Virus record (IMG/VR): IMGVR_UViG_3300005158_000001
Location: 1 to 43,118 of that record
DNA: 43,118 nt
Reading direction: 5' to 3' (one strand)
From: a virus
Positions 624 through 31,425 of this stretch are shown here, piece after piece (positions within the stretch are counted from its first letter, which is position 1; the number at the start of each line of letters is the position of its first letter). The notes below the pieces were generated by a model, which did not search any database, was not told the origin of the DNA, and saw only the letters and a list, made by a program, of their open reading frames with translations. Position numbers and translations under genes: made by a program.

Positions 624-935
624 TCAGACAGACTTGTTGAACTTCTCGAACTTCTTGAGAGCGTCTTCGCGCTCGCGACTCTGTTCGGCGGTGAGACCCT
701 TCACTCCGGACAAGAGGCCGAGCGCGGACCATGCGCCAGCATAGAAGTCCGCCTGACTCTGGTCGGACCTGGTGTTGTACTCGTTCATGATGTAGCGAGC
801 GTGATCAGCAATGGCGGCCTGAAGAGAGAGAGTGAAGGTGCCATTGCTTGCCGACCCTCGGGAATCATCGAGAATTCCAGAGAGCATTTCAGACAGGCCG
901 GTAGGATTTTCCATGGATTCGCAGATGTAGCACAT
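624..935 (-). CDS. Hypothetical early protein, 103 aa
   Basis: The ATG at 935 overlaps the TAA stop of the exonuclease gene (TAATG), which makes it the favoured start; an in-frame ATG eight codons later (MENPTGLSEM) is an alternative. The protein is mainly helical, with a basic, charged C-terminus (REREDALKKFEKFNKSV). Two Cys residues near the N-terminus (MCYICES) could bind a metal if the longer form is made. No family recognised. Coupling to the exonuclease gene suggests a DNA-metabolism operon. Confidence 0.7.
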   Translation of the reverse strand: MCYICESMENPTGLSEMLSGILDDSRGSASNGTFTLSLQAAIADHARYIMNEYNTRSDQSQADFYAGAWSALGLLSGVKGLTAEQSREREDALKKFEKFNKSV

Positions 936-1732
936 TAGAAGGGGAACCATCCATCCTGTTCTGGAGTGTCATAGTAGACAGCTCGTTGCGTCTTGCCTGA
1001 TTGTGTTGTGCAGTTTGGCTTCATGGTACAGAACTTGCACATGTAGTTGGGGTTCGGCTTGGCTACCTTCGATTGAATCTTCTTTTCGAGATCGGCGTAT
1101 ACAGCGCCGATCTCTTCAGGAGTCCTGGTGAACTCAACAAGCTTATGGTTTGGCCCGTAAGGGTTGAGCATCACATACATACCCTTGAACCCCGGCTTGC
1201 CATACAGAGCATTGTATGTTTCCAGCTGAACGCTGTCCTTCTGCCTAGACTTTCCAGTCTTCCAGTCAACGATCAGCAGTCCATGCTTACTGTGTTCCCC
1301 GATCAAATCGGGGAACGCCTTGATTTCCATACTACAGCCAGGAAGATATCCCGTCACATCATGTTCAACGTGATGAACATCCACGTCCTCAAGAAAGACA
1401 ATGGCTTCAGCATAGCAGTCCTGAGCAAGCTTGAGTGCCCTCTCCTCAATCACAGGTGATTCCTTACTACCGCCCGCCAGCCACTTCGAGGTGGCTGGCT
1501 CTACTTCCATGGACTGTTTGACGAGATCCATGAAGTACTCTTCGAGTAGAGCGGGGGAGGGATCTGGGGACTTCGGATCAAGCAACTGCTCTATCATAGC
1601 ATGGACCGTGGTCCCCACGATGAAGTACCACGCAGGAACTGACCACGCCTTCTTCACACGTGACAAGTAGTAGGATCGAGGACAGGAATCATAACTGGTA
1701 AGTGAGCTGTAGGAGATGTGGTCGGGCGTCAT
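935..1732 (-). CDS. Cas4/RecB-family PD-(D/E)XK exonuclease
   Basis: A 265-residue protein with the signature of the Cas4-like RecB exonuclease family. A first Cys is at residue 17 (SCPRSY), a motif-I His at 44 (VGTTVHAMIE), an acidic residue at 142 (FPDLIG), the catalytic DWK at 156-158 (IVDWKTGK), and a QLETY motif at 169. A C-terminal cysteine trio at 232, 235 and 241 (CKFCTMKPNC) should, with Cys17, hold a 4Fe-4S cluster. Family members cut single-stranded or resected DNA ends and act in recombination; phage copies are common and independent of CRISPR. The ATG overlaps the upstream WhiB stop (ATGA). Exact polarity cannot be read from sequence. Confidence 0.88.
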   Translation of the reverse strand: MTPDHISYSSLTSYDSCPRSYYLSRVKKAWSVPAWYFIVGTTVHAMIEQLLDPKSPDPSPALLEEYFMDLVKQSMEVEPATSKWLAGGSKESPVIEERALKLAQDCYAEAIVFLEDVDVHHVEHDVTGYLPGCSMEIKAFPDLIGEHSKHGLLIVDWKTGKSRQKDSVQLETYNALYGKPGFKGMYVMLNPYGPNHKLVEFTRTPEEIGAVYADLEKKIQSKVAKPNPNYMCKFCTMKPNCTTQSGKTQRAVYYDTPEQDGWFPF

Positions 1733-14212: not shown

Positions 14213-14547
14213 GCAGGCATGGCGACATGTGGGCCGACAGGCTCACGAGTGCGATGGGCTCATGGCGGTTCATCATCGTTCAGGCTTTCATCATGATCTG
14301 TTGGGCTGTGTTCAACTGCCTGTATCTGTTCAGGCCGCTGTGGTTCGACCCATATCCGTTCATCTTCATGAATCTGGCTATGAGTGCTCAGGCGGCCTTC
14401 ACTGCTCCGATCATTATGATGAGCAGCAATCGCGCTGCGGCTTCGGACCGCAGCGCCCTTATACATGACGTGAAGCTCGATGAGGAATCCTTGGAGATCC
14501 TCAAGCGAATAGAAGACAGGATCAATGAAGCTCATCAGTCGAAGTGA
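14209..14547 (+). CDS. DUF1003-like membrane protein, possible holin
   Basis: A 112-residue protein starting at 14209 by an ATGA overlap with terminase. It has the DUF1003 pattern: an ADRLTSAMGSWRFI start, a first hydrophobic segment (VQAFIMICWAVFNCLYL), FDPYPFIFMNLAMS, a second segment (AQAAFTAPIIMMSSNR), then a charged helix (LDEESLEILKRIEDRI). Two transmembrane helices with a cytoplasmic C-terminal coil are expected. Its position directly before the amidase suggests a holin-like or membrane role in lysis, although DUF1003 proteins are not proven holins. Confidence 0.8.
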   Translation: MSRHGDMWADRLTSAMGSWRFIIVQAFIMICWAVFNCLYLFRPLWFDPYPFIFMNLAMSAQAAFTAPIIMMSSNRAAASDRSALIHDVKLDEESLEILKRIEDRINEAHQSK

Positions 14548-15196
14548 ACTCGGGTGGCCTCCCACCGCATCCGCCTACTGGCCTACGGCCAAGGGCGTGA
14601 AGATCCACTATGAAGGCACTCCGGTCCACATCACGGACCACTCGCAGTGTGCAAGTCACTGGACCAACATTCGAAATTCCCATCTGGCGAACACCGCAGA
14701 AGGATATGTCGATGTCGCCTACAACTTCGCTGTCTGCCTGCACGGATACGTGCTTGAAGGTCGAGGACTCCGACACAAGACCGGAGCCAATGGAAACCAG
14801 ACTTTGAATGGCGATCACTACGCTGTGGTCGCCTTCCTTGGTGATGACGGTGACACTCAGCCAACGCAGGACATGCTTAACGGTCTTCGTGACGCCATTG
14901 AGTACTTCCAGGCCAACGGAGCGGGGGGGGAGATCAAGGGTCACCGGGATGGCTACGCCACTTCGTGTCCTGGAGACAATCTGTATTCGTGGATCACGTC
15001 CGGTGCTCCACGCCCAATTACTAACGAAGGATTTACTATGGATCAGGAAGCTCGTGAGTGGTTCGGTCAGCTGAACTCCATGGCATGGGGAACTAAGAAC
15101 GACCTTGCCGATGTCAAGATTCTGCTTGGCGACATCAAGACTGTCCTCTCCTTGATCGAGGCCAAGCTCCCTTCCCCCGCTCCAAAGGTTAGCTAA
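14525..15196 (+). CDS. N-acetylmuramoyl-L-alanine amidase (endolysin)
   Basis: A 223-residue protein of the amidase_2/PGRP fold, which cleaves the bond between muramic acid and the peptide stem. Zinc ligands are expected at His28 (VKIHYEG), His140 and Cys148 (GHRDGYATSCPGD), matching T7 lysozyme His17, His122 and Cys130. The conserved AYNFAV motif is at 65-70. After residue 163 a helical tail follows (ARPITNEGF... WFGQLNSMAWG), which may target the cell wall or self-associate. No signal peptide, so release depends on a holin. It overlaps the upstream membrane-protein gene and the portal gene. Confidence 0.9.
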   Translation: MKLISRSELGWPPTASAYWPTAKGVKIHYEGTPVHITDHSQCASHWTNIRNSHLANTAEGYVDVAYNFAVCLHGYVLEGRGLRHKTGANGNQTLNGDHYAVVAFLGDDGDTQPTQDMLNGLRDAIEYFQANGAGGEIKGHRDGYATSCPGDNLYSWITSGAPRPITNEGFTMDQEAREWFGQLNSMAWGTKNDLADVKILLGDIKTVLSLIEAKLPSPAPKVS

Positions 15197-26881: not shown

Positions 26882-26953
26882 CTAGCAATAGCTCAATGGT
26901 AGAGCGCTGCGTTTGGGACGCAGAGGTTCGGGGTTCGAGTCCCTGTTGTTAGA
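26882..26953 (+). tRNA. tRNA-Pro (anticodon UGG)
   Basis: A complete cloverleaf: acceptor CTAGCAA pairs with TTGTTAG (one G-U), D arm GCTC/GAGC, anticodon stem CTGCG/CGCAG with loop TTTGGGA giving anticodon TGG, five-base variable loop, T stem CGGGG/CCCTG (one G-U) with loop TTCGAGT, discriminator A; CCA is not encoded. It would read CCA and possibly CCG proline codons, which are frequent in this genome. Confidence 0.9.
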
Positions 26954-27019
26954 CGTTGATCGGGTAGCACCTGATCCCTCACGTTCGTGAGGTATGAACG
27001 ATGGATCGCGACCATTCAT

Positions 27020-27090
27020 GGTGTACAGCGTAGGCTGTGCTGGCGGGTCTGTAAAACCCTCCCATCGAGGTTCGAATCCTCGGTACACCA
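27020..27090 (+). tRNA. tRNA-Tyr-like (anticodon GUA), atypical
   Basis: Acceptor GGTGTAC/GTACACC, T stem CGAGG/CCTCG with loop TTCGAAT, and an anticodon loop CTGTAAA identical to that of bacterial tRNA-Tyr, giving anticodon GTA. Three oddities: only one base separates the acceptor and D stem, the anticodon stem has a C-T mismatch at its top, and the variable loop is short, whereas bacterial tRNA-Tyr has a long variable arm. It may be a degenerate or remodelled tRNA. A CC follows the discriminator A. Confidence 0.6.
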
Positions 27091-27148
27091 CCCCCCCTCA
27101 TACGGGTTCCGGTATGGCGACAGGACCGGGTAATTTGAAGAGTCGCGG

Positions 27149-27347: not shown

Positions 27348-27821
27348 ATGACTGACGCTTGGGATTACGACGAGACCGACAGCCAGCAGAACGGGCCAAA
27401 GGCACTGCGAGAAGCATACAAGGCCCAGAAGGATGCAAACGATAAGTTGATGAGCCGCCTTGAAGCACTTGAGGCGGAAGCAAATCGCAATCGTGTTGCG
27501 GATCTTTTCGAAACCCAGGGTGTGCCGCGTAGCGCATCCAAGTTCTACAACGGCGACCCCGACCCCGACAAGGTCAATGCGTTCGTCTCTGAAATGCGAA
27601 GCACCTTCAGTGGCGCTTCGCCCGTTGACACCAGCTCTACAGCTCCGACTTACAGCACTGACGATCAGGTGAAGCTTCAGAGCATCATGCAGGCCGGTGC
27701 CAACGGCGATCCGGGTTCCAACTACGACGTTGCCATGTCGAAGATGAACGACCCGACCCTTACTACTCAGCAGCGACTCCAAGCTTACGCGGAGTTCGCA
27801 CGAATCTCCGCTACTCAGTAA
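27348..27821 (+). CDS. Probable capsid scaffolding protein
   Basis: A 157-residue acidic, helical protein directly upstream of the capsid gene, the usual scaffold position. Residues 20-50 (EAYKAQKDANDKLMSRLEAL) are a strong coiled coil, a linker rich in Asp/Pro/Ser/Thr follows (FSGASPVDTSSTAPTYST), and the tail is helical and Gln-rich. Scaffolds share this design rather than sequence. GGGAG precedes the ATG at a 9-base spacing. Confidence 0.7.
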   Translation: MTDAWDYDETDSQQNGPKALREAYKAQKDANDKLMSRLEALEAEANRNRVADLFETQGVPRSASKFYNGDPDPDKVNAFVSEMRSTFSGASPVDTSSTAPTYSTDDQVKLQSIMQAGANGDPGSNYDVAMSKMNDPTLTTQQRLQAYAEFARISATQ

Positions 27822-27865
27822 AGCTCTGGGGTCGCATCCTCCCCAATGATTGGATGTGATCCGGA

Positions 27866-28861
27866 ATGGCCAACGCCTTTACCGGTACTTCGGCGATGCT
27901 GAACCTTGTTCAGACCGCCTTCGATCGCGAACTTGAGTTCGCGCTCCGTGCTCAGCCTATTTTCCGCAAGGTTGCCGACAAGAAGCCTGCTCAGCAGGCG
28001 ATGCCCGGTTCCAGCGTTGTCTTCTCGCTGTACCAGGATCTCGCTCAGGCCATCACTCCGCTCAATGAGCTGGTTGACCCTGATGCCATTGCGGCCGGTA
28101 ACCCGACAACCGTTACTGTCACTCTGAATGAGTACGGTAACGCGATCCTCGTTTCCAACAAGCTCGACCTGTTCTCGTTCACCGACGTTACCGCTGGTCT
28201 TGTCAACCAGGTGGCGTGGAACCTGATCGACTCCGTTGACCTGATCGTTCAGAACGTTCTTGCCGCTGGTACTCAGACCGTTCGCAATGACCCGGCCACC
28301 GGTAGTCCGCAGTACGGTTTCGGCACCAGCCCGACTCAGCCTATCGCCCTTACTGCGATCGACCAGACGCTGAACAGCCGGTTCGATTCGGGCAACGCCC
28401 GCTTCTCGGTCACCAAGCTTCGGTCGAACAAGGTTCACCCGACCCTCAACGCGTACTACACCGCCTATATTCACCCGGATGTCTCGCACGACCTTCGCTC
28501 CGAGACCGGTTCCGCCGCATGGCGTGATCCGCACAACTTCTCGGCCGCTGAGAACATCTGGGGCGGCAACATCGGCGAGTACGAGGGTGCCGTCTACCTT
28601 GAGAACCCTCGCTGTCAGAACCTTCAGGCCGGTTCCGGCACTGGTACTTCTCAGACCCGCGTGTACAACACGTACTTCGTTGGCCAGCAGGCTCTTGCCG
28701 AGGCCGTTGCTGAGGAGTTCCACACCATTCGTGGTCCGGTTGTTGACAAGCTCACTCGATTCCAGCCTCTCGGCTGGTACGGTGTTGCCGGTTGGTCCCT
28801 GTATCGTCCAGAGGCACTCATCGTCAACCAGACTTCCAGCTCTGTTCGTCCTACCATCTAA
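27866..28861 (+). CDS. Major capsid protein, N4-gp56-like
   Basis: A 331-residue protein resembling the N4-gp56 family of HK97-fold capsids. Matching features are the helical start (MLNLVQTAFDRELEFALRAQP), AMPGSSVVFSLYQDLAQA, LNEYGNAILVSNKL, the block YIHPDVSHDLRSETGSAAWRDPH, and GEYEGAVYLENPRC. Hundreds of copies form the head. The ribosome site is weak for such an abundant product. A strong terminator follows. Confidence 0.85.
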   Translation: MANAFTGTSAMLNLVQTAFDRELEFALRAQPIFRKVADKKPAQQAMPGSSVVFSLYQDLAQAITPLNELVDPDAIAAGNPTTVTVTLNEYGNAILVSNKLDLFSFTDVTAGLVNQVAWNLIDSVDLIVQNVLAAGTQTVRNDPATGSPQYGFGTSPTQPIALTAIDQTLNSRFDSGNARFSVTKLRSNKVHPTLNAYYTAYIHPDVSHDLRSETGSAAWRDPHNFSAAENIWGGNIGEYEGAVYLENPRCQNLQAGSGTGTSQTRVYNTYFVGQQALAEAVAEEFHTIRGPVVDKLTRFQPLGWYGVAGWSLYRPEALIVNQTSSSVRPTI

Positions 28862-28866
28862 CAGAT

Positions 28867-28900
28867 AAGAGGGAAGCCTTTACGGGCTTCCCTCTTTCTT
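28867..28900 (+). terminator. Terminator after the capsid gene
   Basis: Twelve-base arms AAGAGGGAAGCC/GGCTTCCCTCTT with a six-base loop, then TCTT. It begins six bases after the capsid stop. It would reduce transcription of downstream genes relative to capsid; readthrough must occur because no promoter is obvious before the next gene. Confidence 0.8.
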
Positions 28901-28911
28901 GTGGAGTAAAC

Positions 28912-29088
28912 ATGGCTACCCTTGCAGTCGGTGTTCCCGTCAACATCTACTATACTGGTTCGTCCGGCTCTCCAAGCCAGATCGCCGGAACTGTCGCTGA
29001 CATTGGCAGCGACTACATCACCATCCAGAACTCCAACGGTGACGACATCACCATTGGATGGGCAAACGTAAACGTAGTAGTGTCGTAA
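28912..29088 (+). CDS. Small beta-rich protein after capsid, 58 aa
   Basis: GTGGAG precedes the ATG. The sequence (VNIYYTGSSGSPSQIAGTV, then YITIQNSNGDDITIGWANV) alternates strands and Gly/Ser turns, like a small barrel or SH3-like fold. It may decorate or stabilise the head. No family named. Confidence 0.65.
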   Translation: MATLAVGVPVNIYYTGSSGSPSQIAGTVADIGSDYITIQNSNGDDITIGWANVNVVVS

Positions 29089-29423
29089 TGGCAAACTGGC
29101 ATTTCCAGACACCGACTGTTGATGAAGGTCCGTTCATGTGGAACTTCATGATGGAGCGGTTTCGTATCACTCGCGGTATCACTGTCAAGCAGACAGCACC
29201 CGGACCAAACTACATTCTCGTTCGATTCGACAGTTACACCAATGAACTCGGCGCCAGCAACTTGCCGCAGAATCCGAATAATGATACGGACTTCTGGCCA
29301 GAACCGTCCGCAGGACTCAATACATTCCGTGGCGGATACGACTGGATAGTCAATGACGCCACGAAGTCTGATCTCATCAACTCCGGCATTGGTATCACCA
29401 GTGCCAACTTCACTCCGGCATAG
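29088..29423 (+). CDS. Hypothetical head-tail region protein, 111 aa
   Basis: Begins at 29088 with TAATG overlap. A beta-rich protein (FRITRGITVKQTAPGPNYILV) with many aromatic residues and a long polar loop. Similar small proteins sit in this position in other actinophages with short or non-contractile tails. No motif recognised. Confidence 0.65.
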   Translation: MANWHFQTPTVDEGPFMWNFMMERFRITRGITVKQTAPGPNYILVRFDSYTNELGASNLPQNPNNDTDFWPEPSAGLNTFRGGYDWIVNDATKSDLINSGIGITSANFTPA

Positions 29424-29429
29424 GTGGAA

Positions 29430-29600
29430 ATGCCTTACCGTAGCTCCAAACAGCGCGCCTTCATGCACGCTGTTCATCCAGATATAGCAGCCCGATGGGA
29501 CAAGGAAACGGGCGGGAAGGTAGTACCGAATGGCAAAGCCAAATCCAAAGGCCAAGCTGGGAAGCGGCGGGCGGTTCGCCGCAGTCGAGGCAGCCGCTAA
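29430..29600 (+). CDS. Small basic phage protein, 56 aa
   Basis: Read directly: ATG at 29430, TAA at 29598-29600. It begins MPYRSSKQRAFMHAVHPDIA, followed by ARWDKETGG and a strongly basic tail (KRRAVRRSRGSR). The pattern 'KQRAFMHAVHPDIAARWDKE' is a recurrent small-protein motif in actinophages as I recall it. It overlaps the next gene by 71 bases in another frame. Function unknown; the basic tail suggests nucleic-acid or virion-DNA binding. Confidence 0.7.
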   Translation: MPYRSSKQRAFMHAVHPDIAARWDKETGGKVVPNGKAKSKGQAGKRRAVRRSRGSR

Positions 29601-29706
29601 GAAGTCCGGCGCAAGCAACCCTGCTGCTGTGGCAGCTTCTGTAGGCCGTAAGAAGTACGGCGAGAAGAAGATGGCCAAGATGGCTGCGAAGGGTCGCAAG
29701 AAGTGA
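29530..29706 (+). CDS. Small basic phage protein, 58 aa
   Basis: Read directly: ATG at 29530, TGA at 29704-29706, overlapping the preceding gene in another frame. The product starts MAKPNPKAKLGSGGRFAAVE and ends SVGRKKYGEKKMAKMAAKGR plus two lysines. This Lys/Arg/Gly-rich design is common in actinophage small proteins and suggests DNA binding. The next gene starts with a GTGA overlap. Confidence 0.7.
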   Translation: MAKPNPKAKLGSGGRFAAVEAAAKKSGASNPAAVAASVGRKKYGEKKMAKMAAKGRKK

Positions 29707-29915
29707 GCGATTACCTTCGCATCAAGAACAGGTTCACCTATCATCCACCGAAGGGTGATCAGGTCGAACGGTACGAGTCCATTCGAGAGAATGGCAAGGT
29801 TACTGCCATGACCTTCGAGGATCTCTGTCCCGCCTCACCTGAACTCACTATGGCCATCAATCACATCGATCAGGCCGTTATGTGGGCAAACGCGGCGATT
29901 GCCAGGAACGAGTAA
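29703..29915 (+). CDS. Acb2/Tad1-type hairpin domain protein, putative anti-defence sponge
   Basis: A 70-residue protein with a GTG start overlapping the previous stop. Its plan is IKNRFTYHPPKGDQVERYESI, a central LCPASPELTMAINHIDQ, and an end AVMWANAAIARNE. This matches my recollection of small actinophage proteins assigned to the Acb2/Tad1 hairpin domain family. Acb2 binds cyclic di- and trinucleotides and blocks CBASS; Tad1 sequesters gcADPR signals and blocks Thoeris. Family members form multimeric sponges of two helices. I infer anti-CBASS or anti-Thoeris activity. It is encoded with late head genes rather than early, which is unusual for an anti-defence gene. Confidence 0.65.
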   Translation: MSDYLRIKNRFTYHPPKGDQVERYESIRENGKVTAMTFEDLCPASPELTMAINHIDQAVMWANAAIARNE

Positions 29916-30166
29916 TGGGCGACTACAACCACATCCCGGCCGAATACAATCCAACGCACAACCCAGTGCCTGAGGACTTCATCCCAGACTATGGCATGAA
30001 GACTCCTGGCGGTACCGACAACCGCCGCATGTGGAACGAGAAGGGCGTGTTGGATCGAGAAGTCCACGAGCATGCTCAGGCTCCGGAAGGCCAGTCCCTA
30101 CCATCCAACCACGATCCGTTTCGGACTGGCATCTATGTCACGAATTCGGTCGGCGACTTCGACTAG
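29915..30166 (+). CDS. Hypothetical protein, 83 aa
   Basis: Start at 29915 by TAATG overlap. A Pro/Asn/His-rich, low-hydrophobicity protein (YNHIPAEYNPTHNPVPEDF), likely extended or poorly folded alone. It may be a virion peptide or a connector. No family recognised. Confidence 0.6.
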   Translation: MGDYNHIPAEYNPTHNPVPEDFIPDYGMKTPGGTDNRRMWNEKGVLDREVHEHAQAPEGQSLPSNHDPFRTGIYVTNSVGDFD

Positions 30167-30407
30167 GCGCAGCCGGTGTAGGACCGGCTGCGCTACCAAG
30201 GACCACAAGTCGTACTCTGACTGCTGCAAGGGAATCCAGCTGAACTCAGGAGCACTCCTGACAGGTGAACAGAAGGCATGGGATACGGAACTCTCCACAT
30301 ACAAGCAGGCGCGGGAGGAAGGTATCCAGCCAATGGGAACCAAGCAGCATCAGATCGACCAGGCCAAGCGATTCAGTGACGCAACTGGCGTCGCCTTTGG
30401 AGGATAA
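30135..30407 (+). CDS. Small Cys-containing phage protein, 90 aa
   Basis: Start at 30135 (MSRIRSATSTRRSRC), overlapping the previous gene by 32 bases. It has an Arg/Ser-rich beginning, then CRTGCATKDHKSYSDCC, a pattern seen in many actinophage small proteins (a TGC..TxDH..SY..C signature), then a helical, Lys/Gln-rich rest. Possible zinc binding. Function unknown. Confidence 0.65.
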   Translation: MSRIRSATSTRRSRCRTGCATKDHKSYSDCCKGIQLNSGALLTGEQKAWDTELSTYKQAREEGIQPMGTKQHQIDQAKRFSDATGVAFGG

Positions 30408-30409
30408 GC

Positions 30410-30886
30410 GTGGCAGAGATGCGCGTATCAATCGAAGGTACAGTAACAACGGCTTCCACTACAGGTGGAACTCCTGCTACTTCGACCTTCACTCAGATAA
30501 CCGATGGAACCGGCACGGCAGGTGTATCCAGTCCGCCGTCCGGCTTCTCCCCCGCTCTATTCGTTTGCGATGGGGCTAAGACGGCAGTCACTACACTCAA
30601 TGCGGTTACTGCCAATACTACTGGCACCGCCGTTGACGGCGGCGGTGCCTACAGCAACTGGTCAGCGATAGGAGTGATGACCGGTTCTCCTACTGCCGGG
30701 ACTCTTACTCTTGAGCTGTCTCTCGACAATGTGACTTTCGTCAGCTCGACCGCAACTCAGGCGATTACCGCAGCCGGTAATGTTGCGATCTTCTCAACCG
30801 GTCGGCCGGCAAGGTATGCAAGGGTTTCACTCAGTGGGCTTGCCGGAACCATAAGCTGCACCGTCAAGATGATGGCTGGTGGATGA
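30410..30886 (+). CDS. Beta-rich virion surface protein, 158 aa
   Basis: GTG start after GGAGG. Very rich in Thr, Ser, Gly and Ala with alternating strands (VSIEGTVTTASTTGG, TLTLELSLDNVTFVSS) and no charged core, typical of phage decoration or tail beta-sandwich domains. Adjacent to two similar genes, suggesting a family of capsid or tail decoration proteins. Confidence 0.65.
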   Translation: MAEMRVSIEGTVTTASTTGGTPATSTFTQITDGTGTAGVSSPPSGFSPALFVCDGAKTAVTTLNAVTANTTGTAVDGGGAYSNWSAIGVMTGSPTAGTLTLELSLDNVTFVSSTATQAITAAGNVAIFSTGRPARYARVSLSGLAGTISCTVKMMAGG

Positions 30887-31425
30887 TGGCTCAGATCAAC
30901 ATAGGAGCTGAGCAGGCCCTTGCCACGTACCCGTCGGCAGATCCGTCCTTCCTCGGAGTATATCTGGCTGGCATTCATGACGTTCCGGCAACTGTAGCCG
31001 CCAATAATTTCATGTCTCTCATGAATCCGACTGGCAGCGGTAAGAAGATTGTCGTTCTTGGCGTGACGGTGGCGGACTATTCAGTCTCCACCGTCACTGG
31101 CTCAACCTCCATGGAGGTGTGGAGGGTCGGCGCTTCCTCCGGTGGAACGCTTACGACTGCGGCCAATGTCAACAGGTTCGTATCTACATTCTCCAATCCC
31201 GTGGCCGAAGTTCGAACAGGCAATCCAACTGTCACACTGACGGGTGCGACCGCACTCATTGGGTTTCCTCCTACGCTCGGAGGTGGAGCTCAGTCGCCGA
31301 ATTCTGCGGCGACCACTCCCGGCGCATCGTTCATCCTGTCCCCTGGAGAAGGGGTTGTCTTCGTTCAGAACGTTGGCGACGTTGATGAGCGATGGAATAT
31401 TCAGATCATTTGGGCAGAAAAGTAG
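30883..31425 (+). CDS. Beta-sandwich virion protein, 180 aa
   Basis: A double Met start overlapping the upstream gene. Strands and turns dominate (KKIVVLGVTVADYSVSTVTG), with Asn/Gly-rich loops and a FILSPGEGVVFVQN motif, consistent with a jelly-roll or Ig-like decoration or tail protein. No enzyme motif. Confidence 0.65.
   Translation: MMAQINIGAEQALATYPSADPSFLGVYLAGIHDVPATVAANNFMSLMNPTGSGKKIVVLGVTVADYSVSTVTGSTSMEVWRVGASSGGTLTTAANVNRFVSTFSNPVAEVRTGNPTVTLTGATALIGFPPTLGGGAQSPNSAATTPGASFILSPGEGVVFVQNVGDVDERWNIQIIWAEK

What the first reader, a model, noticed from the sequence alone, without database searches (positions are those of the whole stretch)
29703..29915. Candidate Acb2/Tad1-type cyclic-nucleotide sponge among late head genes
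The 70-residue protein has a two-helix plan with the characteristic start (FTYHPPKGDQVERYE) and end (AVMWANAAIARNE) that I associate with the Acb2/Tad1 hairpin family. Such proteins sequester CBASS or Thoeris signals. Late-gene placement would be unusual and could mean the sponge is packaged or shields late assembly. The call is from memory of family patterns, not a search.
Basis: partly seen in the sequence, partly recalled or inferred. Interest (0 to 1): 0.7.

Follow-up and report, generated by a model that had tools for sequence, protein, structure and literature searches.

The report
Phage Acb2/Tad1-type nucleotide sponge gene

Summary
A 70-codon GTG-started gene lies at 29703-29915 and scores 66.7 bits (E 2e-18, cut-off 27) against Pfam PF24729, Acb2/Tad1 hairpin. 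The characterised sponges PaMx33 Acb2 and T4 Vs.4 score 66.1 and 71.4 bits against the same model. [quoted passage not shown] The family Tyr aligns with T4 Tyr8, a published binding residue. No ligand binding was shown, and two positions common in the family (Arg46, Thr53) are changed here.

The "unusual late placement" reading is not supported. The phage is a relative of Streptomyces podophages Immanuel3 and Manuel, which lack the gene. The gene sits in the late region 0.84 kb after the major capsid gene, overlapping both neighbours. Two related phages carry it in the same slot. In 11 of 25 unrelated contigs it also lies near portal, capsid or terminase genes; elsewhere it sits in replication modules, which argues against a structural role. 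Nothing supports packaging. A simpler idea is that late co-expression with capsid proteins, known triggers of CBASS and Thoeris, supplies the sponge when signalling starts.

Verdict: a real, ordinary new member of a known family.

The parts
29703..29915 (+). Acb2/Tad1-hairpin protein, 70 aa, GTG start: the finding
   Evidence: PF24729 66.7 bits, E 2.1e-18; phrog_1454 E 3.5e-22; AF2 pLDDT 90
29739..29741 (+). codon of Tyr13, invariant in 29 relatives; aligned by the ends of the Pfam match with T4 Acb2 Tyr8 and PaMx33 Acb2 Tyr11
   Evidence: T4 Y8A is binding-deficient (PMC12657218, PMC12657230). MAFFT instead places His14 there, so the register is uncertain by one residue
29784..29786 (+). codon of Arg28 (27 of 29 relatives); 15 residues after Tyr13, the same spacing as Tyr11-Lys26 in PaMx33 Acb2 and Tyr8-Lys23 in T4 Acb2
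   Evidence: sequence comparison
29763..29903 (+). the two long antiparallel helices of the predicted hairpin (residues 21-41 and 46-67)
   Evidence: DSSP on the predicted model
29530..29706 (+). small Lys-rich protein immediately upstream, its stop overlapping the sponge start; paired with the sponge in the clade
   Evidence: found only in the window, L002-L004 and L014 among all loci held, and in no phage record
29430..29600 (+). small ORF MPYRSSKQRAF..., overlapping the Lys-rich ORF; a similar overlapping pair exists in L014
29915..30166 (+). downstream gene, its ATG overlapping the sponge stop; homologue of Immanuel3 gp57 and Manuel gp59
   Evidence: phrog_11906
29058..29423 (+). upstream late gene, homologue of Immanuel3 gp59 (52%) and Manuel gp61 (54%)
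   Evidence: phrog_8987
27866..28861 (+). major capsid protein, 72.9% identical to that of Streptomyces phage Immanuel3
   Evidence: phrog_1357 E 2e-79

Best explanation
The gene encodes a short, hairpin-only member of the Acb2/Tad1 sponge family in the late region of an actinobacterial podophage (a Beephvirinae relative; host probably Streptomyces or a neighbour). It is probably translated with its neighbours by coupling at overlapping start and stop codons, shortly after the capsid protein. Its product most likely assembles through the helical hairpins and binds cyclic di- or trinucleotides (CBASS signals), or possibly gcADPR (Thoeris signals), without degrading them. Late, abundant expression would suit a stoichiometric sponge whose target signals are triggered by capsid or prohead proteins. 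Shown: the gene, the family, the predicted helix plan, conservation of the aligned Tyr, the position and its synteny. Inferred: oligomerisation, ligand binding, ligand identity, anti-defence activity, single transcript and timing.
For: Full-length PF24729 match at 66.7 bits; PaMx33 Acb2 (66.1) and T4 Vs.4 (71.4) match the same model. The family profile finds PDB 9ptq 'Acb2 homolog 43' at E 2e-4, with Tad1 structures next at 0.037. The intermediate BigBubba gp102, already published as an Acb2-like protein (PMC11953737), hits 9ptq at 1e-5. The predicted plan is a short N-helix plus two long antiparallel helices at pLDDT 90, as described for Acb2 (PMC10419184). The Tyr is invariant in 29 of 29 relatives. 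The family sits in head, replication or other modules in different phages, as an accessory counter-defence gene would. The gene is absent from Immanuel3 and Manuel although the head genes are orthologous. CBASS and Thoeris can be triggered by capsid or prohead proteins (PMC11312562, PMC12409349).
Against: No binding, multimer or rescue data. Foldseek against PDB returned no Acb2 or Tad1 structure and nothing significant, although short helical hairpins are poor fold-search queries. hhalign against the PaMx33-type Acb2 alignment was weak (E 0.009, probability 4.6%); against T4 Acb2 alone it gave E 1.5e-4, probability 51%. The protein lacks about 20 residues between Arg28 and the last helix compared with T4 Acb2. 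Arg46 (17 of 29 relatives) and Thr53 (17 of 29) are Pro and Asn here; the T4 position aligned with Thr53 is Thr68, where T68M lowers binding (PMC12657230).
Confidence: 0.72

Rival explanations
1. The protein is a head-associated or assembly factor that merely shares the helical-hairpin fold; its place among head genes reflects a structural role.
For: In 11 of 25 unrelated contigs a nearby gene is a head or packaging gene; the slot is conserved in the window's clade.
Against: Close family members sit in replication or other non-structural modules (Heath beside a ssDNA-binding protein, 20ES beside thymidylate synthase, Lily beside a recombinase); Immanuel3 and Manuel build orthologous heads without it. 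It matches the sponge family as well as PaMx33 Acb2 does.
Confidence: 0.1
2. It is a family member that no longer binds canonical CBASS signals, or binds a different nucleotide, because binding residues have changed.
For: Arg46 and Thr53 are replaced by Pro and Asn in the window and in L002; the T4 position aligned with Thr53 affects binding (PMC12657230). Losing or retuning Acb2 is thought to be selected by Panoptes (PMC12657218).
Against: Other members also vary at these positions (6 have Arg and 2 have Asn at 53), and the motifs around Tyr13 and Ala62-Asn63 stay intact.
Confidence: 0.15
3. The sponge is packaged in the virion and delivered at infection.
For: Only the position in the late region.
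Against: The same family occurs in replication or other non-head modules of other phages; a virion could carry few copies, probably too few to titrate a signal (inference).
Confidence: 0.03

Closest known systems
phrog_1454 / hairpin-only Acb2/Tad1 proteins (e.g. Paenibacillus phages Sitara, Lily and Heath; Gordonia phage ChisanaKitsune gp20)
   Same: Similar length, 48-53% identity for the best phage records, same FTYHPP...ANAAIAR pattern
   Different: Window protein has Pro46 and Asn53 (SPELTMAIN in place of SREKSLALT); the relatives are annotated hypothetical or 'phosphomannomutase'
Acb2 of Pseudomonas phage PaMx33 and T4 Vs.4
   Same: Same Pfam hairpin family at similar scores; Tyr and Lys/Arg 15 residues apart; same helix plan
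   Different: 18% (T4) and 15% (PaMx33) identity; about 20 residues more between the Lys/Arg and the C-terminal helix motif; PaMx acb2 lies on the opposite strand just after the structural cluster
Mycobacterium phage BigBubba gp102, called a cyclic nucleotide sequestering protein (PMC11953737)
   Same: Same family, ANAAIAR ending, PF24729 59.1 bits
   Different: 30% identical; lies beside a ClpP-like protease gene, not head genes
Tad1 (CbTad1, PDB 7uav)
   Same: SRENACALTHVEEALMWMN resembles the C-terminal helix
   Different: Tad1 has an additional N-terminal beta-sheet (about 125 aa in all); the window protein has only the hairpin part

Membership tests
Pfam PF24729 Acb2/Tad1 hairpin | Score above the curated cut-off (27 bits) over the whole profile | tested here: met
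   66.7 bits, profile 1-58 of 58; all 29 aligned members match
[quoted passage not shown]
   predicted helices 4-10, 21-41 and 46-67, pLDDT 90; a prediction, not a solved structure
Acb2 | Conserved binding Tyr (T4 Y8, PaMx33 Y11) | tested here: inconclusive
   Tyr13 invariant and aligned by the Pfam match ends, but MAFFT shifts the register by one
Acb2 | Fold match to solved Acb2 structures | tested here: inconclusive
   Foldseek PDB gave no significant match to anything; the sequence profile finds 9ptq Acb2 homolog 43 at E 2e-4
Acb2 | Homohexamer that binds cyclic di- and trinucleotides | not testable with these tools
   no multimer or ligand prediction, no assay
Tad1 | N-terminal antiparallel beta-sheet plus hairpin, gcADPR pocket | tested here: not met
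   70 aa, all-helical model without strands; so not Tad1 proper, only the shared hairpin domain
Anti-CBASS or anti-Thoeris function | Rescue of sensitive phage in a defended host | not testable with these tools
   experiment needed

The most novel reading that the evidence does not exclude
Hairpin-only sponges are preferentially placed in head operons so that the sponge is made together with the capsid or prohead proteins that trigger CBASS and Thoeris: trigger and antidote in one transcript.
Probability: 0.25. Interest if true: 0.55.

Novelty: new member of a known kind. Interest (0 to 1): 0.3.

Why it matters
It adds an Acb2/Tad1-type gene to a Beephvirinae-like podophage lineage whose cultured Streptomyces relatives Immanuel3 and Manuel lack it. 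It also suggests a testable rule for when phages deploy sponges: beside the capsid genes that can set off nucleotide-signalling defences. Otherwise it is an ordinary member of a known, widely distributed family that is mostly annotated 'hypothetical'.

Tried and rejected
Single-sequence phmmer against PDB found nothing relevant; only the family profile did. Foldseek against PDB was uninformative. NCBIfam has no model for it and PADLOC none. hhalign against PaMx33-type Acb2 was weak, so the family link rests on the curated Pfam model and on T4 and BigBubba-like intermediates. The idea that 29424-29600 and 29530-29706 are one frameshifted gene was dropped because L014 has a similar overlapping pair. 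No promoter or terminator beyond chance was found in 27800-31000. As a control for the head-gene link, neighbours of PaMx33-type Acb2 also include terminase, head protease, holin and endolysin families, so the link is not clearly specific to the short subfamily. The primary Acb2 and Tad1 papers looked up by DOI or PMC id were not held, so binding residues come from later open papers.

Full report
Observation. Its GTG overlaps the stop of the ORF at 29530-29706, and its TAA overlaps the ATG of the next gene at 29915-30166, the arrangement of translationally coupled genes. Against the 67%-identical relative L002, differences fall mainly at third codon positions (19/14/41).

Family. Pfam PF24729 (Acb2/Tad1 hairpin) matches over its full length with 66.7 bits, E 2.1e-18, cut-off 27. 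PaMx33 Acb2 and T4 Vs.4, run as positive controls, score 66.1 and 71.4 bits, and BigBubba gp102, already published as a sequestering protein (PMC11953737), scores 59.1. PHROGs places the window protein in phrog_1454, function unknown. A profile of 29 relatives finds the solved 'Acb2 homolog 43' (9ptq) at E 2e-4 and then Tad1 chains at 0.037. Comparison with the PaMx33-type alignment by hhalign was weak, and with T4 Acb2 moderate.

Fold and residues. AlphaFold2 from 28 sequences gives pLDDT 90 and helices 4-10, 21-41 and 46-67, the plan described for Acb2 (PMC10419184). Foldseek against PDB gave nothing significant, which for a short hairpin is not informative. Phe11, Tyr13, His14, Pro16, Gln20, Pro43, Ala62, Asn63 and Ala67 are invariant in 29 relatives, and Arg28 is kept in 27. 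The Pfam match ends align Tyr13 with T4 Tyr8 and PaMx33 Tyr11; T4 Y8A is binding-deficient (PMC12657218, PMC12657230). Tyr13 to Arg28 has the same 15-residue spacing as Tyr to Lys in both Acb2 proteins. MAFFT shifts the Tyr register by one, so this is a tentative equivalence. Arg46 and Thr53, each present in 17 of 29 relatives, are Pro and Asn in the window and in L002; the T4 residue aligned with 53 is Thr68, where T68M lowers binding (PMC12657230). Specificity may therefore differ.

The phage. The window is a 43118-base virus record. Its capsid protein is 72.9% identical to that of Streptomyces phage Immanuel3, its terminase 69% and its portal 59%, in the same gene order as Immanuel3 and Manuel (Beephvirinae). 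Those two phages have no PF24729 match. In them the slot between the homologues of 29058-29423 and 29915-30166 holds a minor tail protein; in the window and in L014 it holds a Lys-rich small gene and the sponge, and L002-L004 (three contigs that appear to carry one phage) have the same pair in the same place after the 29058 homologue. Among bacterial genomes the best matches are Streptomyces contigs, in keeping with an actinobacterial host.

Placement. For 25 contigs outside the clade, PHROGs scans of large nearby same-strand genes gave head or packaging genes in 11: L005, L006 (terminase, fourth gene downstream), L007, L008, L009, L011, L016, L019, L023, L025 and L027. Four had DNA-metabolism genes, one a tail fibre, one was ambiguous and eight were unassigned. 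Gene calls in these contigs were made by a simple longest-ORF script. A tally over up to four neighbours per locus was likewise led by portal, head-protease and head-morphogenesis families. Gordonia phages ChisanaKitsune and ScarletRaider carry it directly after the portal gene. Other relatives lie in replication, nucleotide-metabolism or recombinase regions. Late placement is therefore common, not unusual, and the spread of contexts argues against a structural role. A control with PaMx33-type Acb2 neighbours also showed terminase, head-protease and lysis genes, so I do not claim the link is special to the short form, and no matched random-gene control was run.

Mechanism. Acb2 and Tad1 act by stoichiometric sequestration (PMC12043709). 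Capsid or prohead proteins can trigger Thoeris and CBASS (PMC11312562, PMC12409349). Making the sponge together with the capsid would supply it in quantity when signalling begins. This is inference; no ligand, multimer, transcript or rescue was tested. Packaging has no support.

Verdict. A real gene and a new member of a known family.

Noticed in passing
window 29530-29706: A Lys-rich small protein (MAKPNPKAKLGSGGRFAAVEAAAKK...) is directly upstream of the sponge in all members of this clade and had no match in the phage collection.
   Followed up: partly
window 29430-29600 and 29530-29706: Two overlapping ORFs in different frames; a similar pair in L014 suggests two real overlapping genes and not a frameshift.
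   Followed up: partly
window 26882-27093: Only two tRNA genes (Pro, Tyr) lie upstream of the capsid region, where Immanuel3 and Manuel carry 22 and 19.
   Followed up: no
phage records such as KT361655, MH460826 and KT151955 (hits H5, H37, H34): Relatives of this 70-aa protein in Paenibacillus and Brevibacillus phages are annotated 'phosphomannomutase', which looks like a propagated misannotation.
   Followed up: partly
window 935-1732 (-): Cas4-like / PD-(D/E)XK nuclease match, probably the phage exonuclease and not CRISPR.
   Followed up: no
L133 and L134 (Streptomyces genomes): The sponge gene lies directly upstream of a gene related to the endolysin-like window gene 14525-15196.
   Followed up: no
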